From NCBI GenBank assembly GCA_033182465.1, contig CP137322.1, positions 1,612,001 through 1,676,000 on the forward strand: DNA of 64,000 nucleotides, read 5' to 3'. The notes beneath the pieces are model-generated. The model was not told the origin of the DNA. It did no database searches and saw only the letters and a program-made list of their open reading frames with translations. Shown here piece by piece: positions 30,779-64,000 of the stretch (position 1 is the first letter of the stretch; every line of letters begins with the position of its first letter). This DNA comes from Sanghuangporus weigelae (lineage: Eukaryota > Basidiomycota > Agaricomycetes > Hymenochaetales > Hymenochaetaceae). A program made the translations under genes and the position numbers.

Positions 30779-33700
30779 ATGGAAAAGAAACCATTTCCAG
30801 GTATTGGCAGAGGCCCGAACCCACCTAACAATGCCAGTAACTCGAACGACCCTTTTACGAACCATACGCAAGCACAGGCACAGGCGCGATTTAGTTATGC
30901 GCAGTCGAATGCGTCGTATGCGACGCAGAGTCAGATAACGCTCCAGGATATTGAGAATTCTGTGACGAGTATGCAGAATCGGTTTCCGGGTACGTCGCAG
31001 AGTGCTGCTCCTCCTCCACCGGCGCCGAGTGGGCAGCAGCCGTTCCAAACTCGACCGCCACGGCCGCCGGGCATGTCATCGGACACTTCGCTAATTGATG
31101 GGGCCGGTGCAGCTCAGGGAGTAGGTTCGGGCGGTGGTGCGTCCTTTCCTGTGCGATGCCAGCCGAATGGACCGCCTATCCTCCCTGTGATCAGTTCTGG
31201 GAAGGCGCTGGAGTGGGAAGGTTTTGAGGGATACCTACGGACTGATGCACTTCGGGATAATGGTGAGACGACGCCTTTGAATGCCCAAGCGGGTGTGCAT
31301 CAGGTTCCACATCCTCCCATACCACCTCAGTCTATCGCAACTTCGGGCCAGTTCAGTTCAGCATATGATGAGAAAGCGCATTCTCGGCCTGCATCGGCGT
31401 ATCCTGTGCCACGACCGACATCTGCCGCTTATCCTTCTACCCGACCGACTTCGGCAGCTTTCTCTTCTTACAATGCACCTCCGTCACAGATTGCAGCTGA
31501 GCATGCCTCAAGCTACGCGCCAAGTCAGCCTCCGAGCTCGCATGGTCATTATAGCGCGGATTATCCGAATACTCCGCAGTACGATGCTGATGGGCAGCTG
31601 ATGGTTGATCACTATGGTCACGACGTGGAGGCGTATGCCAGTGGACTTGACTCTGGTACGGGCCGTCAGATCCGTTCTCGTTCAGTAACTCCGATGGGTA
31701 ACGAGGAGTATATGTCAGTGGAGGACGACGAGGACGGCACTGAATATACCGACGAATATGAAGACGATCCAGAAAAGGGCGTCGGGTATGATTATGGTTA
31801 TCATAATAGTCACCATGTCCATTTCCTGGAACCAAATTCCAATCCGAACCAGGCGTTTGTGCAGAAGTCTCCCGCATCTGAGTATCTGAATACACCTGTT
31901 ACGACTCAGCATTATGGTCCAGCTCCAGTTGGACGAGTTACGAGGCGGATTCACCAGAAGCGCAGGGTACAACTGACGAATGGTAACCTCGTTATCGACT
32001 TGAACGTCCCGACGAAACTTGTCCTTCCGCTCAGAAGAGAGGAGGAAATGATGAAGACGCGGTATACTGCGGTGACGTGCGACCCGGATGACTTCAAGAG
32101 GAATAATTTCTTTTTACGACAGAATGATTATGGAAGGAGAACGGAGCTCTTTATTTGCATAACAATGTACAACGTGAGCCTATTTAGCCTTACTTGATGC
32201 TCTTTGATTTTACTTTTGGTGTTGCGCTTCAGGAAGACGAAATTTTGTTCTGTCGAACGCTGCACGGTGTAATGCGTAATATTGGTCATCTCTGCACCCG
32301 AAAGAACTCGCAAACTTGGGGTCAAGACGCTTGGAAGAAAGTAGTGGTCTGCATCGTCGCCGATGGGCGGAAGAAAATTCATCCTCGGGTCCTCGACTGT
32401 CTTGCTGCTCTCGGTTTATATCAACATGGAGATTTCATGAAGAACCTGGTCAATAACAAACCCGTCACAGCACATCTTTTCGAGTATACGACTTCCTTTG
32501 GGTTGGACGAGAACCTGCATTTCCGATATCCTGACAAGGGCATTGTACCGACACAAATCATATTCTGCCTGAAGGAGAAGAACCAAAAGAAGATCAATAG
32601 TCATCGATGGTTCTTTAATGCGTTTGCGCCTCTGCTTCGGGTGAGTTCTCTTCAGTGGTTTTGTACTTAATGGTAATGGTTATTGACGAGACTTACTTTC
32701 CAGCCCAATGTTTGTGTGCTCATTGATGTAGGGACTCGACCTGGACATAAGAGTCTCTATCACTTATGGAAGACGTTCGACCTGAACTCGAACGTCGGCG
32801 GCGCATGTGGCGAGATAGCCGCATATAAAGGGAAACGTTGGGGATATCTTTTGAACCCTCTTGGTACGTATCTCTATTGGCTCAAGCTCGCTGCATGCTG
32901 AGGTCATCCAGTTGCTGCACAAAATTTTGAGTATAAAATCTCAAACATTTTGGAGAAACCCACAGAGTCACTCTTCGGGTACATCACTGTCCTGGTAAGT
33001 CCTGCAGTCCGGTGTCATTCGAGTGTTGGTAAATCTTTTTTCTAGCCCGGTGCTTTCTCTGCGTACCGATATATAGCCCTCCTGAACAACAAGAATGGCA
33101 TTGGTCCTCTTGCTTCGTATTTCAAAGGAGAGGTCTTGCATGGAAGTGAGACTGACGTCTTTACGTCGAACATGTGTAGGTTTTATAAGAACCTAATCAA
33201 GCCCGTGTTCTCACGAAGTTCTTTTGCACTTCAGATCTTGCTGAAGACGTGAGTTTCCGTCGCATTTGGACAGATAGACGCTAAACATAGATGTGTAGCG
33301 TATCCTTTGCTTTGAGCTAGCTGCAAAGGAGAACTCCGATTGGTAATAGGTCCCTCAGTCTGCGGAAGCATTGTTATCGACTTACATCAAATGTAGGGTC
33401 CTTCGATACGTCAAGTCGGCTGTGGGAGAGACAGATGTCCCGGATGGTCTCCCAGAGTTCATCGCACAGAGGAGACGATGGCTTAATGGATCCTTCTTCG
33501 CGTCCATATACGCCATTGCTCATGCCGCGCAAATCATACGTTCCGGCCACAGCACAGGTCGAAAATTCATGCTTATGATCGAGACTGCGTATAACATCAT
33601 CAATCTTGTCTTTGCCTGGTTTGCCCTTGTAAGCGGTTGTGCTATTTCTCTGTCGGGATACTCGGACTGATTCTGCTTAGGGGAATTTCTATTTATTCTT

Positions 33701-35233: not shown

Positions 35234-36671
35234 TTAGGAATACAAGAAATCATAGAAAGACTGGTTAGGATCGCGAGAAGTTCTCTTAACCAAGCGAGTT
35301 CTCCCCTTTCGCAAGCGTCTTGAAGGCGGACAAGGCGAACGAGAGTGCGAAGGCGATGAAGATGTGCGGCTGACACCACGTCTGTCGCGGAGCGGGGTTC
35401 GTTCGACTAATTGTGATGTGTATCTGATAGGCGGTTCTCTGGCAATCGGGTTTAGGTCAAGAGAATCAACGCTCTGCGCTAGATCACCGTTGACCGACTC
35501 GTCGTCGTCAGCGAATTCGGCCGGTTCTTCTCTCTCAGGTGGTGGACGGAGCCGCGTCGCACGCGGTGTATCATCTACTTCTGACTCGTTTTCCCTTTCG
35601 GATACGGATGAAAGGCGTCTGTGACGGGCGCCACGTCCAGTAGAGACTTCGGTATCTGACACATTGTCCGGTACAGGTTCATTCTCTTCGACGGAAAGTA
35701 TATCGGATTCGGATAGGACACCGAGTGAGGAGTCAGTTTCCCCTGCCGTGGCGGGTGGTGTATCCAGTATATTTCGAGCTGCATAGTCTGAACGAGTGAC
35801 ATTTGGGCGAAGGAGGAAAGTTAGACGTCTGCCATCGACGTCTTTGCCTGGATTTGGGCGCATATATAAGCATCCTAGGGGACGGTCACAGAGTACTTTA
35901 TTGACTCACTGTAACTTACGACCTTGTGATACCGCGCGCAGCAATGAACAACGTATCGAGCGAAAGCATCCTGCTCGACGCTCCAAATCAATTGCAACGG
36001 CGTGCGAGACAGCTCAACTATAGTCAGAGTGCTCCCGATTGGACGACCATGGATCATTAGGACACCCTCCGCCTCATCGGGGAGCAGTATTGTTCCTCCA
36101 GCTAACCAGTCCTTGATCTCTTTCTCGACATCGCGAACGAGTATCTGAGCTCTGGGACCGTGTCCTCGTAAAGTGCGACGCATCCCTTTCACACTCATGG
36201 AATAACGTCCCATATTAGCTGAAGCGGGATCAAAGACTGGATGAATAGCAGCCGGCGCTGAGACACTCCGTGGAAGGTAGGAAGGTAGCGGCTCCGGCTT
36301 AGACTTTCGTTAGCGCCTTGGACGCAAAATCTACTTCAATGACTCACAAAAGTCCTCCGTGTTGATGGCGGCACGATCTGAATGTCCTGGGTACCAGCCT
36401 GTACTACGAAGGGATTATTCGTGAAATGAGCGTTCTCTCTCCGCCTGATCCAGCGTTTCCCCTCCCTTTCATCGCGGGATCTCTTCTTGGATGATATCAG
36501 AGTCTGAGACCCTCCATTTCCAGCCACAGAGGTTTCGCGTAAGTATGCAAACCTGTCTGCAAGCTTCGCACTGCGAAGGATAGCAGGAAAAGACATTGGG
36601 ACAGAATTAATTGTGGACTCTGACTGCTCATTGTGTTCAGCAGAAGTCTGAATCGCAGTTATCGACTCCAT
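35234..36671 (-). CDS. R3H-domain protein with R3H-associated N-terminal region
   Basis: Minus strand exons 36671-36348, 36303-35910, 35847-35234 (introns 44 and 62 nt); 443 residues. The N-terminal part (RFAYLRE...KRWIRRRENAHFTNNPF, residues ~40-100) fits what I know as the R3H-associated N-terminal domain. Exon 2 carries DVEKEIKDWL, then a segment ending DAFARYVVHCCARYHKVVSYS with the R-x3-H of the R3H motif (about residue 224), a single-strand nucleic-acid-binding fold. The C-terminal 200 residues are acidic, then Ser/Arg-rich, ending SFYDFLYS. The second intron was placed to restore SYSKDVDGRRLTFLLRPNV; a shorter alternative would be only 35 nt. Likely nuclear or RNA-related. TCACGTGT lies 116 bp upstream of the ATG. 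Confidence 0.75.
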
Positions 36672-36786
36672 GGCAAGATAGGGCTAACAGTGGTGGTGGC
36701 AAGATATCAAACACGATGGCAAATTGCAAGAGGACAAGCTGAACAAAACAAATTAAGAAGTGACTGACTCTATCTATGACAGCAGA

Positions 36787-36830: not shown

Positions 36831-39800
36831 TCATTGCAAGCCAGCACTTCTCTCCTTTTCGTTGAGATGATACAGGATACCCATAGCTTCCACCAAAGTC
36901 AGCCATTTCGGTTCCTCTCCCTCTCTTCTCGATGTATAGTCAACTGAATAACCTCCCAAAAGTCTCCCAACCGGATACTCATATGAGTCTTCGAGTTTGA
37001 TCTGACTTGAGCTCGCCTCGAGGGATGAAACGTGTGCACGGCGTTTGGTTTTCTTCTTTCTTGGTTCAGAAGAATCTTGCGATGTGTTAGTGCTGCGCAA
37101 GACGCCTGCCGATGGATCTAAGTGCCATGCCTTTTCGACATTATCGGAAATTGCTCCGGATGACAGTGCCGAAGATATTATAGGCTCTCTGACCCGATCG
37201 GGTGCAACATCAGCACGTTGCTTTCCCTTGTCTTTGCTTGTGACGGGATGTTGTTGCTCTCGTTTGTCGGTACCGCGCGACGTAGCTTGGTCGCGATTCG
37301 CCTCGCGTCGCTGAAGGAACGTGGGAGCTCGCCATGCCTCCTTATCGTGTAGCCCGCTTTGGTTCACGGACCCCCTTGTTTCTGCTTCGGCAGGAGATGA
37401 AGCACGAGCCTTCTTTCTAGCTTGCACGCCTTCGCCATCCCCAACGACGGAGTTCATAGCACGAAGCGGCGAAGAGGATCGCGGGCGCTTGCCAAGATGC
37501 GTTGTAGGCGAGCCTTGAATATGAGATAAACGATAAGCTTCTCGTGTATTTAGCTGTTTACTGCGCCTCTCGAGTTCTTCGGGTCCACTGTCTTTAGACG
37601 CGCGGGCAGACTCGGCCTGTTCGCGAAACAAAATTCTTTGCGTCCTGGCGTCATCGACATCCAAGGATGCTAGGGTCTCTGGCTCATCGACGTTCTGCCT
37701 GTCTGCGTTGGATGATTCTATCTGACCAAGCGAACTCTCCTGCGTATGGCTCTGTTGCGAATCTTCCTGGGTCACAGACGACGACTGCTGTTCTTGCTCA
37801 GCTCGACCAGGACCATTAGGCTGCGTATGAGTTGCAGAGGTGCCTGGTGCTTTAGCAAGAGGCTCAGACATCGAGTCAGGTTGCATCAGTTTCGAAGGCT
37901 GCAAATTTCGGTCTGTGCGCCTTTTATCCTTTCGGTCGTTTGATGATTGCCATATTTGCCGGGGCTGATTAATAGAACGACTCGCGGAGAGCGGTACACG
38001 CGTCCCTCCCTGCGAATGGGCGGAAGATGATACGTGCTCCTCCTGTGACGACTCATTGTCCATCCGTGAAGAGGCTGATACCTTCCCAAGGCGAGAAACC
38101 TGTTTATGGAAAGTTCGTGAAGGAGGAAGCTGAGTCTGAGTCTGTGGCTGTGAGTCATATTGCGACGGGAGAAGCGTGACGGACTGCGTTTGAGACTCTG
38201 TCTGCGACTGTGATTGGGATTGCGAGTTCGTGCGGTCCGAAGTATCTGAATCTGGAACAAGTATCCTAGGAGCGCTGTCCTCAACTTTCCCCCTAGAACT
38301 AAAATTGAATTGCGGATGCACATCGCGCTCTTTCCGTGGTTTCTCATTGACACGAGATTCACGATGATGGCCTACAGGCTTCGGGGAAGCATGGTAAGGG
38401 AAAGCTGCCATAGGAATGCTTGATGGCCAGCTCGAACTTGGGGGCAAGTCAGAGCTGTTAGGCTCCGAGTTTTTGTGTTGAGTCGAATCACCCCCGGACT
38501 GCGCAATGGAGTGACTCGTCTCAGACTCCTGTCGCCGTCGCTGCGCGGGAGTCGGCGCTGGGTAGGAAGGACCCATTGTTTCTTCTTCGCCACTTTCATC
38601 ACTGCGGTCACTGCGGTTTTCATTTCCGTCATTTTCTTCATAATCCTCTCCATCAGAAGCTTGAATTTCCTCCATTCTTTTATCACCTTCACCCTCAGGA
38701 GATAGCTGCACACCTGGAGAACTCGTACGTCGTGGCGTTGGTAATCCGACCGGAGATGAGTTGTCCTCGTTAACCTCCTTTCGTCCTTCTCGCTTCGGAC
38801 TCAGTCGTTCGTCATCAGAATTCATCCATTCGCTTGGCGTGCTGGGTTCCTTTGCACTCCTTTGAGTGCTGGCAAGCGCCTGGGCAGTCAAGGGGGAGGA
38901 CATGGGCGTATGAGCCACGTTTGCTTTTTTTAATCGAATAAGATTAGCGACCAGAAGTGGAACATATGAAATGCCTCACAATGATCTCTTGAAGACTTTT
39001 TTGATGTAGATTCCTGCTTCAGAGGGACACCATCTTGAACGGAAATGTCGTTGAGAGTTTCTTCACCCATATGTCGCTTAGACTCTTTTGGAACTACAGT
39101 GCCTCTTACACCTGTTAGTTCTTTACCAAATGCTAGTACAAATCAATGAGACAAAAACGAATCGAGAAAGAATATTTATGTCAGTCGTTATACGATTAGG
39201 ACGTGACCATACATACTCAGAATTTGGTCATGCTCAATTTGCACCTCAGGGGGTGGATGAATGTGATGGGCGAAACGACTAATCATCTGTGAGTCAAAGT
39301 ATGCGCGTAAAGAGCCTTGGTGAGTGAAACCGTGACGGATATAAATCAGAGAACACGGACCTTCCAATATCGATTGTATTCCTTCAAAAGCTCGGTCATG
39401 GTCTTCTTCTTCATGTTAGACTCGCTGAAGATGGTAGGAACTTTCAAATGGCGAGTCTTTGGCAAAAGCGGGTCCTTCTGGGGAGATGCGACTTTCTCCG
39501 TGGGTAGGACAAGCTGTTGCTTAACCTGCGGAGGTCTCACCTCGGCAATCTCTTCCTTCGGTCGTTTGAGAATGTTTCTGAACAAATTGTAAGAGTGAAA
39601 CGGAGAGTACATTCATTTTAAACGTGTATGAGCTTACCCTCCACCACCACCTTCTTTGAGTCCTGATATCCACTCCTGCATGTCTTCATGCATTTCAATG
39701 CTGGTTGGATTCCCGAAAATGCCTTCGTGATCGGCTCCGAGGATGCGAAATTCACCGACTTCAAGAGCAATAGTTTCGGTATCTGTCATTCCCTTGCCGT

Positions 39801-40327
39801 TACCGAGAGGTACTCGAGCGAAGAAGGCCTTCACATCGCCGATGACTGCAAGCGCAAAACGTCGCGTCGTCAGACGACGTTCATCCTCAGCCTGGCCAAA
39901 TACTTCATTCTCCCTATCGTCACCATTTCCAGCGATGTGATGTTGATGTCCCGCGGTAGGCCGCAATAGGCGAACAAAAGACCATATTAGTAGACTATTT
40001 GAAGGAAGGACTCTGCCACGATGTACGCACCGGTTGTAGGCCGCGACTGCATTAGTAGTAAATTTTGCCGGAAGTTCATACTGTTTGTCTGAGATCAAAG
40101 CCCAGATAATGTGGTTCGGTTGGTCGTTAGGTGGGTAAGTCAGAAACTGGAGAAAGTGGTCGTATGAATAACAAGGGTACGAAAACAATGGGCGTCATGC
40201 TTACTCTCGTGATTTGGATTTTACGCTTCTCCTTCAGCGGAGGCGCGTCGTGGATGTTTGCTCCGCGTGTCTCGGCGATCCCCAGCAAGTACTTCAGAAT
40301 CCAAGGTCGTGCGAGTGATTCAGCCAT
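36831..40327 (-). CDS. TPP1/Tpz1-like candidate shelterin subunit
   Basis: Minus strand exons 40327-40205, 40146-40031, 39913-39638, 39577-39361, 39286-39217, 39132-38980, 38923-36831; six introns with agreeing phases, 1015 residues. The N-terminus reads MAESLARPWILKYLLG, like the RPWI-x-LILG start of the human TPP1 (ACD) OB fold. Then come IIWALISDKQYELPAKFT, like TPP1 LLVSDGTHSVRCLVT, and RRFALAVIGDVKAFF plus IALEVGEFRIL, like its later strands. So residues 1 to ~150 look like a TPP1-type OB fold, which in animals and fission yeast bridges the telomere end-binding protein Pot1 and recruits telomerase. The rest is disordered and Ser/Gln-rich (SQSQSQ, TQTQ), ending in a conserved-looking tail (YPVGRLLGGYSVDY, PKWLTLVEAMGILYHL) that could dock a Poz1/TIN2 partner. 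Family call is by eye; another OB-fold protein is the alternative. Confidence 0.6.
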
Positions 40328-40774: not shown

Positions 40775-44831
<4,057 letters not shown>

Positions 44832-57657: not shown

Positions 57658-59714
57658 TCATAGCTTAGTCGTCTGCGTCTGCGTGGTGAAATTGACTGTC
57701 AACGGGGTTGGGTTGGGAGGTGGGACGGGATGGTTATAATACGCCGCCGTAGTCGTCGCCGTCGTCGTCGCCGCCCCCGCCGCACCACTACCGCCCCCGG
57801 CAGGCCCCCACACCGAGCCGTTCCGCTCAGTAATCAGCGCGTGTACCTGCATGCGCAGCCCGTGCACGATAGCGCGCAGCGCGCCGACTTCTTCGTTCAT
57901 GCGCAGGTTCTCGGTTGTGAGCGCGACGTCCGTCCGACGGGTGAGTGCGTCGAGTGCGCTGGAGACGGCTGTGATGCTCGTGCGGAGCCCGATGAGCGCG
58001 CCTTCGAGGGTCGACGAGCGGTCGACGGGTGCGACGCGAGGGAGGCCTCCTCCTGCTGCTGCTGCTACTGGTAGTGAGCCGTTAGAGGTTAGCCCAATTT
58101 GGGGTTGCGAAGGGGACGATAAGTCCGGAAAACGTATGGGTGGTGGTGGGTACATGCTCTGGAACCGGTTAGAGAAGGGGAAGAGGTGTCGCGTGAGTGG
58201 GTCCACCTGGACTGTCGGAGGAGGGGACAACGTGGTAGGAGGTGGGGCCGCGCCATCTGAAGGGAAAAAAGGTGCTAGAAAGGCAGGGTCCGTAAATGAA
58301 GGAGCTGGTGATGGTGATGCAGGATTGCCGCTGAGTGATTCAACTTCGCCTGAATGTGATATTGGTGAGCTTTCTGGAGAGAAGCTCAGTATTGGTGCTA
58401 GGGGATTCGAAGAGCGCCATCGGTGTTGTTCAGAAAGAACCTGAGAAGCCTGGGCAACAGCCGCCGATTCCGTAAGTTCGGAAGATGATATGTGAGGACT
58501 AGTACTGTCGCCAGAACGCCACCAAGGGCCCAACGCTTTTCTAGTAATGGCAAGCTCCCTGGTGAGTGCGTGAATATTTGCCTCCGCCTTGTTCAAGTTC
58601 TGTCTCAGTACAGTGATCTCATCACGTAATGCCGACATCCGCGTATCATTAACCGCGAAGAATCCTTTAATTGCCTCGTAGGGACATTTCTCGAGGTGCT
58701 CTGGTAGAGTTTTGCGCTTTTCACGCCATGGACATCCGTGATCGGAATGCGCGCAGGCGATCTGGAGTTCGGAGCAAGTGGCAGTATGTCCGGACAACTC
58801 ACCCCGCTTGCATCTCCCAGAACACGCCACACATTCGGTTTCTTGCTCCGCGCATTCATGTTCATGAGCCTGACGTACAAAAGGAGAAAAGCATCATCAG
58901 ATTGGCAAGAAGGAGACAGATAACAAAGAAGCGGTTGGGCGGAGGGGTAACGAGAAATTCGGCAGGGAAACAGAAGTAGAAGTACGTACCTCCAGTTCAG
59001 AAGCCGTAACGGAGGTGCCACACGCGGCGCACTTCACCAGTCTGTGCACACAATCGTGTGTGTGTTTGCCTAGATCTCTGCGAAGCACCGTTTGTTCGCA
59101 CCCTTCTTCGGAACATGGGACTTGTACAAAGTGGCATGTTTCCTTGAGATGCGTGCCGAGAAGCTGCCGTTGGCAGGTGGTCTTGCATCCTGCTGCTTTG
59201 TGAGGACATTCAACAATGAGTTCATCTACCATCTGAGAAGCACAATACAGTCAAAATCATTCATATGCGCAAAACATATGGCGCACGTACGTTTCTCAGC
59301 AGCAGGTTCTCTGGCCTTAAGTCGTCCAAGGAGAGAGGTGAACGATCCACAGGACAACACGGCTGCTGTTCTAACGTCCGCTCAATGCATGCTCTGCAGA
59401 ATGTATGGGAGCATGTTGTCGTCACGACTGGATTAAGGAACGGGCATCTTCACAGTGATTCAATAAGCTTCGTCCCCAGGAATGAATGAATCGATGGATT
59501 TCAACTCACTGGCATATACAGCAGATCTAATCACCGAGTCAGACGGATCTGAAAGACGTAAAGGTGAATGTATGCTCACAAGATTTGTGTTAACTTCTCC
59601 GAAGTATGAGTAATAGATCATGGTACAAGGCAAGGCAAGGAGAGACGTGAAGCGCAGACGGAAGGGCGCATCGATGCCGAGACGATCATCGAAGCGAGTC
59701 CTCGGCCTCGGCAT
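57658..59714 (-). CDS. RING and TRAF-type zinc finger protein
   Basis: Minus strand exons 59714-59580, 59526-59510, 59447-59291, 59232-58990, 58869-57658; phases agree, 587 residues. The 17-nt second exon supplies the first zinc pair (ICCIC), then exon 3 gives CPFLNPVV, TCSHTFCRACIE and PCCPVDRSPL, a C3HC4 RING at ~46-90. Exons 4-5 contain repeated Cys/His modules typical of TRAF-type fingers (ECPHKAAGC, CSEEGCEQTV, KCAACG, HECAEQETECVACSG, CAHSDHGCPW), residues ~105-250. A coiled coil follows (MSALRDEITVLRQNLNKAE), then a Pro/Ser-rich linker and a second helical segment (ALTRRTDVALTTENLRMNEE). The order RING, TRAF fingers, coiled coil suggests a ubiquitin ligase. No C-terminal MATH domain is seen. 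The first-exon end is the least certain part. Confidence 0.85.
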
Positions 59715-61246: not shown

Positions 61247-64000
61247 TCATGGCCACACTAACGATAAGGTGAACCTCGTCTCCGCGATTTCCTGCTCCTC
61301 CTCAATCAAGAGTCTCCTGCCCTCCTGCCTCTCTCCGACATCCTTCGGTACACTGCGTACCAGCTTCTCGACATATGCAGCGTGCTTTTCTAATGCACTC
61401 AGGATGTCCCTTCCGGTATCATCCTGGAAACTGTAGAAAACGTCGATATCATCTGTGGCCTGTAGACCAGCCTTCTTCCGCAACTTCTGGACGCGGTTGA
61501 CCAATTCACGCGCCAGCCATTCGCCTTGAAGCTCTGGATGAACCTGTACATCGAGAAGCACGACCACATCGTTATCCGAGTTCGAACCATACGCGTCCCC
61601 GCTGTTCTGCATATCGACAAAACGCTGAACAGTCAGGTCGCCGGCCACGAGCTCGATTCCATCCACAGTTAGTTTGCCCGTATCCATGTACGCTTTGACA
61701 GCATCACTGGGCACAGACGGAAGTGCGTTCTTCACGCGTACGAGGTCCTTTCGCAACTTCTTCCCAAGCACAGCCCAATCTGCTACCGCGCGGAACTTCA
61801 CACCCGCCCGTGTCTCGTCAGAGGTGAAGATGATGTCTTGTACGTTCAGCTCGGATTGGATATACCGCTGTAGGGGTTGCACATCCGCCAGGTATTGTTC
61901 ATCAGAATGGAAAATGATGAGTTCTTTGAGAGGTGTCTACGAAGCGAAAGACGTATTTAGCTGTGATCTGCTGTTACTCTTGAAAAGTGAAACGCTCACC
62001 TTTAAGGAAAGAGTAAATTTATCACGGATGGCCCTGGCCAGTTCGATGATGGTCTGCATTCTCTTGACTTGACGCTCGATGGCCTCGTCGAAGTATTCCT
62101 CCTTCACTTCGGGAAATAGTAAGAAATGAATGGATCGCGTGTCAGTTTCTTGTGGATCTTGAGGAATAAATGGGCGGAGAGCTTGGTAGATGTTCTCGGT
62201 GAGGAATGGAGTATACGATGACTGAAGGAAAGATTAAACAGTTAACGGATGAATACTTGAGGTTTGAACAACCCAATTTACCATCGTTCGACATAAAGTG
62301 AACAGTGTCTCAAACAGCGTGTTAAGAGCTGTGAGTGTATCTTCAACACCATCCTCACCCTTTAATCTCCGTCGGTTGAACCGAATGTACCAGTTCGTCA
62401 GCTCATCCACAAGGTCTAACAGACGAGGCACAATCGTATACAATCGATACGCCGCCATTTCCTGACGCACAAGCTTGATCAAAGACTGACACCGTGCCAG
62501 GATCCAGCGGTCCATCACGTTGGAAGATACTGGTGCATGCGGATTGTATCTGAAATCTACGTCACTGTCCTTTTTGAGCAATGCAACCTGCCCAAGGAAG
62601 AATCTAGCAGCGTTGAGCCACGGAAGGAACACACGTGAAACGATCTCTCGGACTCCTGCCTCACGGAATCGAAGGTTCTCGGCTCGGGTAACAGGGGAGT
62701 TGACGAGGTACATGCTAGATCTGAGCGTTAGCAGATGGATATTGTAGAAATCATTCTGAGAACGTACCGAGTTGCATCTGCGCCATACGTATTTATGATG
62801 AGATTCGGGTCCGGATAGTTCTTCGCACTCTTGCTCATCTTCTTTCCGTCCCTAAACAATCATGTTTATATTTGTTATCTCCAAAGTTGTAACTTCATAA
62901 CTCACTCAGCAAGTACAAGTCCAGTGGTGATGAGGTTCTTCCATGGTGCCTTTCCGAACAAATGAGTCGAGAGAACCAGGAGCGTGTAGAACCAGCCACG
63001 CGTCTGGTCAATGCCTTCAGAAACAAAGTCGGCAGGAAACGTGCGCTCAAATTTCTCTTGATTCTCAAACGGATAATGTTGTTGCGCATATGGCATACTT
63101 TCCGGAGCGAAAGATGTGAGTTGAAAGACCCGCAGATCAATCTGCAATCATCGTACCTCCCAGATTCAAACCAGCAATCAAAGACTTCTTCGACGCGTCG
63201 CAGTACGCCCTTGCCTTGCTTCGACGGGATGGTGATATGGTCTATTTTTTCGCGATGAAGGTCTGTGATTCCAGTGACACCGGAGAGCTCCTCAAGTTGC
63301 GCGATGGAACCAATGGCGACTATCTGAAAGAGAGAATCATCAGCCAGCTGCTGTACTATCGGAGTCTATGGAACTGACCTCCTGGAAATCCTCTGAGACC
63401 CAGAGCGGGATCGGTGTACCCCAATAACGATTCCGTGATACACTCCAGTCACGGGCATTTGCAAGCCAATTTCCGAAGCGACCTTCTCCGATCTGAGGAG
63501 GGACCCTACGAATGTCATTTAAGTGCGTAAATAAACTTGAAGCCTAGAGAAGATCTGAATCATTACTAACCATGATGTTTCCTTGTTGTTTGCTAGGAGC
63601 CTGTCCGTCGACTCCTGGACTCTCACAAACCAGACCGGGATGGCACGATATATCAGAGGCGTTTTAGATCTTTGCAGACCAGTTAGTTTTCACTTATCTT
63701 AAGCTTATCATAGTCCCGAGGACTGACCTCCAGCAGTATGGGTAAGGATGCAGATACATGGCATGGTTGATGAGTCGGCCCTTCGCCTTCAGCATCTTTA
63801 TGATTTCCTTGTCTGCATCCTTGACATACAGTCCCTTGAAGTCTGTGGCCTCCTTCGTGAAGCAACCGGCATCATCAATAGGACACGGCGGCGTCTCGTC
63901 AGGATTGACGATACCATTCGCAATCGCAATACGGTGGTCGTCATCACCAAATGCTGGCGCCTGGTGAACTATACCTGTTCCTTCCTCCTCCTTGACGTAT
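61247..64000 (-). CDS. ILS1: cytosolic isoleucyl-tRNA synthetase, partial (5' part outside window)
   Basis: Charges tRNA-Ile with isoleucine. The gene runs leftward and enters from the right edge, so the N-terminus with HIGH is missing. Minus exons: to 63728 (from beyond 64000), 63669-63571, 63505-63379, 63323-63157, 63097-62906, 62851-62768, 62714-62282, 62221-62000, 61936-61247. Visible landmarks are [32 protein letters not shown] and KMSKS in [15 protein letters not shown] (exon 62851-62768). [19 protein letters not shown] marks the anticodon-binding domain. The C-terminal extension ([14 protein letters not shown] and on) is of the eukaryotic cytosolic type. Introns are 53-74 nt; all phases checked agree. 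The class I catalytic signatures in view are intact. Confidence 0.96.

What the first reader, a model, noticed from the sequence alone, without database searches (positions are those of the whole stretch)
36831..40327. Candidate TPP1/Tpz1 telomere protein in a basidiomycete
Directly seen: seven exons in phase give a 1015-residue protein whose first ~150 residues match, block by block and in order, the TPP1 OB fold (RPWI...LLG start, ISDKQYELPAKFT strand, RRFALAVIGDVKAFF and EVGEFRIL strands). Known: TPP1/Tpz1 OB folds are poorly conserved in sequence and often missed by annotation, and they recruit telomerase and bind Pot1. Inference: this is the Tpz1 orthologue, with a Poz1/TIN2-type docking site in the conserved-looking last ~50 residues.
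Basis: partly seen in the sequence, partly recalled or inferred. Interest (0 to 1): 0.75.

Follow-up and report, generated by a model that had tools for sequence, protein, structure and literature searches.

The report
Fungal TPP1/Tpz1 telomere protein gene
This looks like a real fungal gene for TPP1/Tpz1, the protein that links the chromosome-end cap to telomerase; the identification holds, but a standard protein-family search already recognises it and relatives in basidiomycete fungi are in print.

Summary
Its N-terminal domain matches Pfam TPP1 (PF10341) above the curated cut-off of 26.5: 32.0 bits for the first 244 residues, 33.5 bits (E 4.5e-8) for residues 1-171. No other Pfam family was reported at E ≤ 10, and 0 of 8 controls (7 shuffles, 1 reversal) matched anything. 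Reading intron 2 as coding lowers the score to 27.4. The match covers residues 7-85 only; the second half of the OB fold was not significant alone, and a single-sequence AlphaFold model was useless (mean pLDDT 37.7). A Poz1/TIN2 site at the C-terminus was not shown. I take it as a TPP1/Tpz1 orthologue. TPP1 is reported in Cryptococcus and Kwoniella (PMC11185503, passage), so this is a new member of a known family. One modest oddity: intron 2 is a stop-free multiple of three at the loop aligned with the human TEL-patch, so retaining it would insert 39 residues there.

The parts
40205..40327 (-). exon 1, start codon at 40327; residues 1-41, includes the RPWI..LLG start of the OB fold
   Evidence: TPP1 match is 20.6 bits on the contiguous reading of exons 2-3 with intron 2, 27.4 with exon 1 joined and intron 2 kept, 32.0 with intron 2 removed
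40147..40204 (-). intron 1, 58 nt, GTAAGC..CTCCAG; no CTRAY site
40031..40146 (-). exon 2; ISDKQYELPAKFT strand, ends inside the codon of R80
39914..40030 (-). intron 2, 117 nt, GTGCGT..CGATAG, CTAAT branch-like site about 73 nt before the acceptor with no AG between; multiple of three with no in-frame stop, so it could also be read through
   Evidence: Pfam bits 32.0 without it and 27.4 with it
39638..39913 (-). exon 3; loop aligned with the human TEL-patch (ENEVFG, residues 81-86), RRFALAVIGDVKAFF, EVGEFRIL and a terminal segment that reads like a helix
39578..39637 (-). intron 3, 60 nt, GTAAGC..GTTCAG; no CTRAY site
39361..39577 (-). exon 4; region after the OB fold where Tpz1 carries its Pot1-binding motif (position only, not tested)
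   Evidence: motif position in S. pombe Tpz1 (185-212) from PMC9333443 passage
39287..39360 (-). intron 4, 74 nt, GTCCGT..TCACAG; its CTRAY site has an AG before the acceptor
39217..39286 (-). exon 5
39133..39216 (-). intron 5, 84 nt, GTATGT..TACTAG
38980..39132 (-). exon 6
38924..38979 (-). intron 6, 56 nt, GTGAGG..AAAAAG, CTAAT site 20 nt before the acceptor
36831..38923 (-). exon 7; long serine-rich linker (15.6% S over residues 251-950 of the protein), then a C-terminal segment with WLTLVEAMGILYHL at residue 992; stop codon at 36831-36833
   Evidence: no Pfam family at E up to 1 in the enclosing 714-residue ORF

Best explanation
The gene encodes the fungal TPP1/Tpz1 orthologue. By analogy with human TPP1 and S. 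pombe Tpz1, the N-terminal OB fold would contact the TERT part of telomerase through a loop equivalent to the TEL-patch, the segment after it would bind Pot1, and the long linker would connect these to a C-terminal peptide that docks on the rest of the shelterin bridge. Shown here: the gene model is open and the first half of the OB fold belongs to the TPP1 family by profile. Inferred: the second half of the fold, Pot1 binding, telomerase recruitment and the C-terminal docking.
For: Pfam PF10341 above cut-off on the spliced domain: 32.0 bits, E 1.3e-7 and 33.5 bits, E 4.5e-8, cut-off 26.5. It is the only Pfam family reported at E up to 10; 0 of 8 controls matched anything and the human TPP1 OB fold, used as positive control, matches the same family at 113.2 bits. 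The first half aligns to the human OB fold better than all but 4 of 3000 shuffles. The match begins at residue 7, next to the start codon, and is followed by a long serine-rich linker; the layout of S. pombe Tpz1 is similar (N-terminal OB fold, Pot1 motif, distal Ccq1 and Poz1 motifs; PMC6686008 and PMC9333443 passages).
Against: The Pfam match stops at residue 85. The full OB alignment to human is weak (110 of 3000 shuffles as good; 60 of 2000 for a local alignment) and the second half alone is at chance (2778 of 3000). No match in solved structures at E up to 10. The AlphaFold model, made from a contiguous reading with intron 2 included and exon 1 missing, had mean pLDDT 37.7 and gives no support. 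No relatives could be fetched, so conservation of the linker and C-terminus is unknown.
Confidence: 0.9

Rival explanations
1. The protein carries an OB fold of another family (RPA32, Stn1, Ten1 or Pot1 type), and the TPP1 match is a by-product of shared OB-fold features.
For: Only the first half of the domain matches TPP1 (residues 7-85); the second half is not significant against human TPP1; RPA2, STN1 and TPP1 have been argued to be ancient paralogues (PMC9119445 passage).
Against: Pfam-A was searched whole and no other family was reported at E up to 10, although HMMER's filters drop most matches above about 0.1.
Confidence: 0.06
2. Intron 2 is not an intron: its 39 codons are coding and the protein is 1054 residues with a long insertion in the OB fold. 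It would still be a TPP1 relative (so this rival overlaps the best explanation).
For: The 117-nt stretch is a multiple of three without an in-frame stop, while the two other introns of length a multiple of three (60 and 84 nt) do hold stops; it is the longest of the six introns, and its branch-like site lies about 73 nt before the acceptor. With it kept, the TPP1 match still passes the cut-off (27.4 against 26.5).
Against: Donor GTGCGT and an AG-free run from the branch-like site to the acceptor; AG-free runs of 70 or more follow 3.8% of 185 such sites on this strand, this one included. Pfam score falls from 32.0 to 27.4 bits with the insert, and the alignment to human TPP1 falls to chance (2023 of 3000 shuffles as good).
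Confidence: 0.12
3. The match is chance and the reading is not a telomere protein.
For: A single profile match of moderate strength; no relatives fetched.
Against: E 4.5e-8 with 0 of 8 controls matching; the match starts next to the start codon and is strengthened by splicing.
Confidence: 0.03

Closest known systems
Pfam PF10341 TPP1 (Shelterin complex subunit, TPP1/ACD)
   Same: N-terminal domain passes the curated cut-off
   Different: match covers profile positions 2-88 of 158 only; human TPP1 covers 1-157
Human TPP1 (ACD), OB fold of PDB 2i46
   Same: RPWI start; gap-free alignment of residues 58-94 across the TEL-patch loop
   Different: in that loop only E81, F85 and G86 are identical (EEKEFG in human, ENEVFG here); the second half aligns poorly; longer protein (1015 residues)
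Schizosaccharomyces pombe Tpz1
   Same: general layout: N-terminal OB fold, then room for a Pot1 motif and distal motifs; a tryptophan followed three residues later by an aliphatic residue near the C-terminus, W992/L995 here, W498/I501 in Tpz1 (mutant named)
   Different: no direct sequence comparison with Tpz1 was made; W-x-x-L is too short a pattern to count; SSSWPSS at 481 is not the SWSSS motif and lies in a serine-rich linker
TPP1 orthologues of Cryptococcus and Kwoniella
   Same: basidiomycete TPP1 reported by orthology (PMC11185503, passage)

Membership tests
TPP1/Tpz1 (PF10341) | match to the family profile above the curated cut-off | tested here: met
   32.0 bits and 33.5 bits against 26.5
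TPP1/Tpz1 (PF10341) | complete OB fold | tested here: inconclusive
   first half supported, second half not significant against human TPP1; model of mean pLDDT 37.7 made without exon 1 and with intron 2
TPP1/Tpz1 (PF10341) | TEL-patch on the OB fold that contacts TERT | tested here: inconclusive
   loop ENEVFG aligns with human EEKEFG without gaps; two acidic residues, no functional evidence
TPP1/Tpz1 (PF10341) | Pot1-binding motif after the OB fold | not tested
   a segment that reads like a helix (TELLKEYNRYW, residue 233) lies after the OB fold; not compared with any Pot1-binding motif
TPP1/Tpz1 (PF10341) | C-terminal TIN2/Poz1-binding motif | tested here: inconclusive
   last 95 residues match no solved chain at E up to 10; Tpz1-Poz1 structures exist (5XXF named in PMC9333443) but were not compared directly
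TPP1/Tpz1 (PF10341) | binds Pot1 and recruits telomerase in cells | not testable with these tools
   needs experiment
other OB families (RPA, Stn1, Ten1, Pot1) | match to the family profile | tested here: not met
   none reported in Pfam-A at E up to 10; HMMER's filters drop most matches above about 0.1

The most novel reading that the evidence does not exclude
Intron 2 ends right at the start of the loop aligned with the human TEL-patch, is a multiple of three and has no in-frame stop. If it is sometimes retained, the cell would make a TPP1 with 39 extra residues in its telomerase-contacting loop: a splicing switch between telomerase-recruiting and non-recruiting forms.
Probability: 0.04. Interest if true: 0.55.

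Novelty: new member of a known kind. Interest (0 to 1): 0.25.

Why it matters
[quoted passage not shown] A further full-length gene model would help to show how widely the Pot1-TPP1 pair is kept in fungi and gives a sequence for studies of telomerase recruitment outside the model yeasts. It does not change the picture in kind.

Tried and rejected
Poz1/TIN2 docking site: the last 95 residues gave no match among solved chains at E up to 10. The W992/L995 spacing resembles W498/I501 of S. pombe Tpz1 (mutant named in PMC6686008), but such a short pattern is not evidence.

SWSSS motif of S. pombe Tpz1: SSSWPSS occurs at residue 481, not an exact match and in a linker of 15.6% serine; taken as chance.

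Structure: one AlphaFold job on the contiguous reading 39638-40146 (169 residues, exons 2-3 with intron 2 included, exon 1 absent) gave mean pLDDT 37.7; no fold search was run on it because a low-confidence model gives meaningless matches. The second job was not used.

Relatives: the same reading found none in viral contigs (5 stretches matched a pattern, 0 confirmed) or genome contigs (43 matched, 0 confirmed); these collections are of viruses, bacteria and archaea and are not expected to hold fungi. No genome is held for the window. No tRNA and no Rfam family at the gathering score was found in the window.

Literature: searches. 'shelterin' + 'TPP1' + 'Agaricomycetes' gave 0 papers; 'PF10341' gave one ciliate paper, seen as a listing only. 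Seven papers were seen as found passages only (PMC9119445, PMC11185503, PMC7952879, PMC6686008, PMC9333443, PMC4936895, PMC10246852); none was read whole, and supplements were not read, including S2 Text of PMC11185503, where its shelterin genes are described.

Full report
The gene model. The ORF listing shows that the ATG at 40327 is the first after an in-frame stop. The six introns measure 58, 117, 60, 74, 84 and 56 nt. I chose the splice sites by eye; a CTRAY branch-like site followed by an AG-free run to the acceptor is present in introns 2, 5 and 6, broken by an AG in intron 4 and absent from introns 1 and 3.

The family. On the contiguous reading of exons 2-3 with intron 2 included, Pfam reports TPP1 (PF10341) at 20.6 bits, below its cut-off of 26.5. 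With exons 1-4 joined it reaches 27.4 bits and E 3.3e-6 with intron 2 kept, and 32.0 bits and 1.3e-7 with intron 2 removed. For residues 1-171 it is 33.5 bits and 4.5e-8, with human TPP1 as positive control at 113.2 bits and 0 of 8 control sequences (7 shuffles and the reversal) matching any family.

Limits of the match. It covers residues 7-85, profile positions 2-88 of 158. Against the human OB fold, the first half scores better than all but 4 of 3000 shuffles, the whole domain better than all but 110 of 3000, and the second half does no better than chance (2778 of 3000). A local alignment of the whole domain was matched by 60 of 2000 shuffles. The AlphaFold model from a single contiguous reading had mean pLDDT 37.7 and was not used further.

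Intron 2 and the TEL-patch loop. In the alignment, residues 58-94 pair without gaps with human TPP1 across EEKEFG. With the first residue of the 2i46 construct taken as residue 90 (recalled), this is E168-G173 and holds K170, a TEL-patch residue whose deletion causes disease (PMC4936895 passage). The loop here is ENEVFG, residues 81-86. The exon 2/exon 3 junction falls inside the codon of R80, directly before it. Intron 2 is 117 nt, a multiple of three with no in-frame stop, unlike the introns of 60 and 84 nt, which hold stops. Splicing is favoured by the GTGCGT donor, by a CTAAT site followed by an AG-free run to the acceptor (runs of 70 or more follow 3.8% of 185 such sites on this strand, this one included), and by the family score. 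Transcript data would settle it.

Function. By analogy with TPP1 and Tpz1, the most likely role is to hold Pot1 on the telomeric overhang, recruit telomerase through the OB fold and connect to the rest of shelterin by a C-terminal peptide. Only family membership of the first half of the OB fold is shown. The C-terminal docking site is an inference that I could not test: no solved chain matches and no relatives were obtained.

Surroundings. The gene is divergent from a plus-strand reading whose first ATG is at 40775. Further along that strand, open stretches hold pieces of a protein kinase domain (Pfam Pkinase 59.7 bits for 44066-44329, above the cut-off of 31.7; 26.1 for 43691-44047 and 19.1 for 44487-44828, below it). 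The best solved matches of 44066-44329 are the membrane-associated cdc2-inhibitory kinase (PKMYT1, name recalled), with Wee1, GCN2 and CDK6 among the 60 shown of 876. I did not splice this gene, so that the kinase belongs to the reading at 40775 is a guess. Of 20 other open stretches scanned gave a Pfam family at E up to 0.01: a chitin synthase in two stretches (30779-32667), a TRAF zinc-finger protein (57661-58893) and two stretches of a tRNA synthetase (61250-62851; DUF5915 and Anticodon_1; 'isoleucyl' is recalled). They fit a fungus with short introns.

Novelty. TPP1 orthologues in basidiomycetes are in print: PMC11185503 reports POT1, TPP1 and a TEN1-like gene in Cryptococcus and Kwoniella (passage). 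The Ustilago Pot1 paper discusses the Pot1-TPP1 complex, but the passages I saw name no Ustilago TPP1 gene (PMC9119445, 12 of 13 places shown). Since a public profile finds this gene once the exons are joined, it is a new member of a known kind and of modest interest.

Noticed in passing
40775-44828 (+): Divergent neighbouring reading (first ATG at 40775, 447 bp from the TPP1 start codon) and, further along the same strand, pieces of a PKMYT1/Wee1-like kinase domain; probably one gene, not spliced here.
   Followed up: partly
35237-36683 (-): Further minus-strand open stretches downstream of the TPP1 gene, including one with an ATG at 36671; no Pfam match at E up to 0.01 in the two stretches scanned (35237-35905 and 35875-36309); 36336-36683 was not scanned.
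   Followed up: partly
30779-32667 (+): Chitin synthase gene (Chitin_synth_1N and Chitin_synth_1), consistent with a fungal source.
   Followed up: no
39914-40030 (-): Intron 2 is a multiple of three with no in-frame stop and ends at the loop aligned with the TEL-patch; possible in-frame retention isoform.
   Followed up: partly
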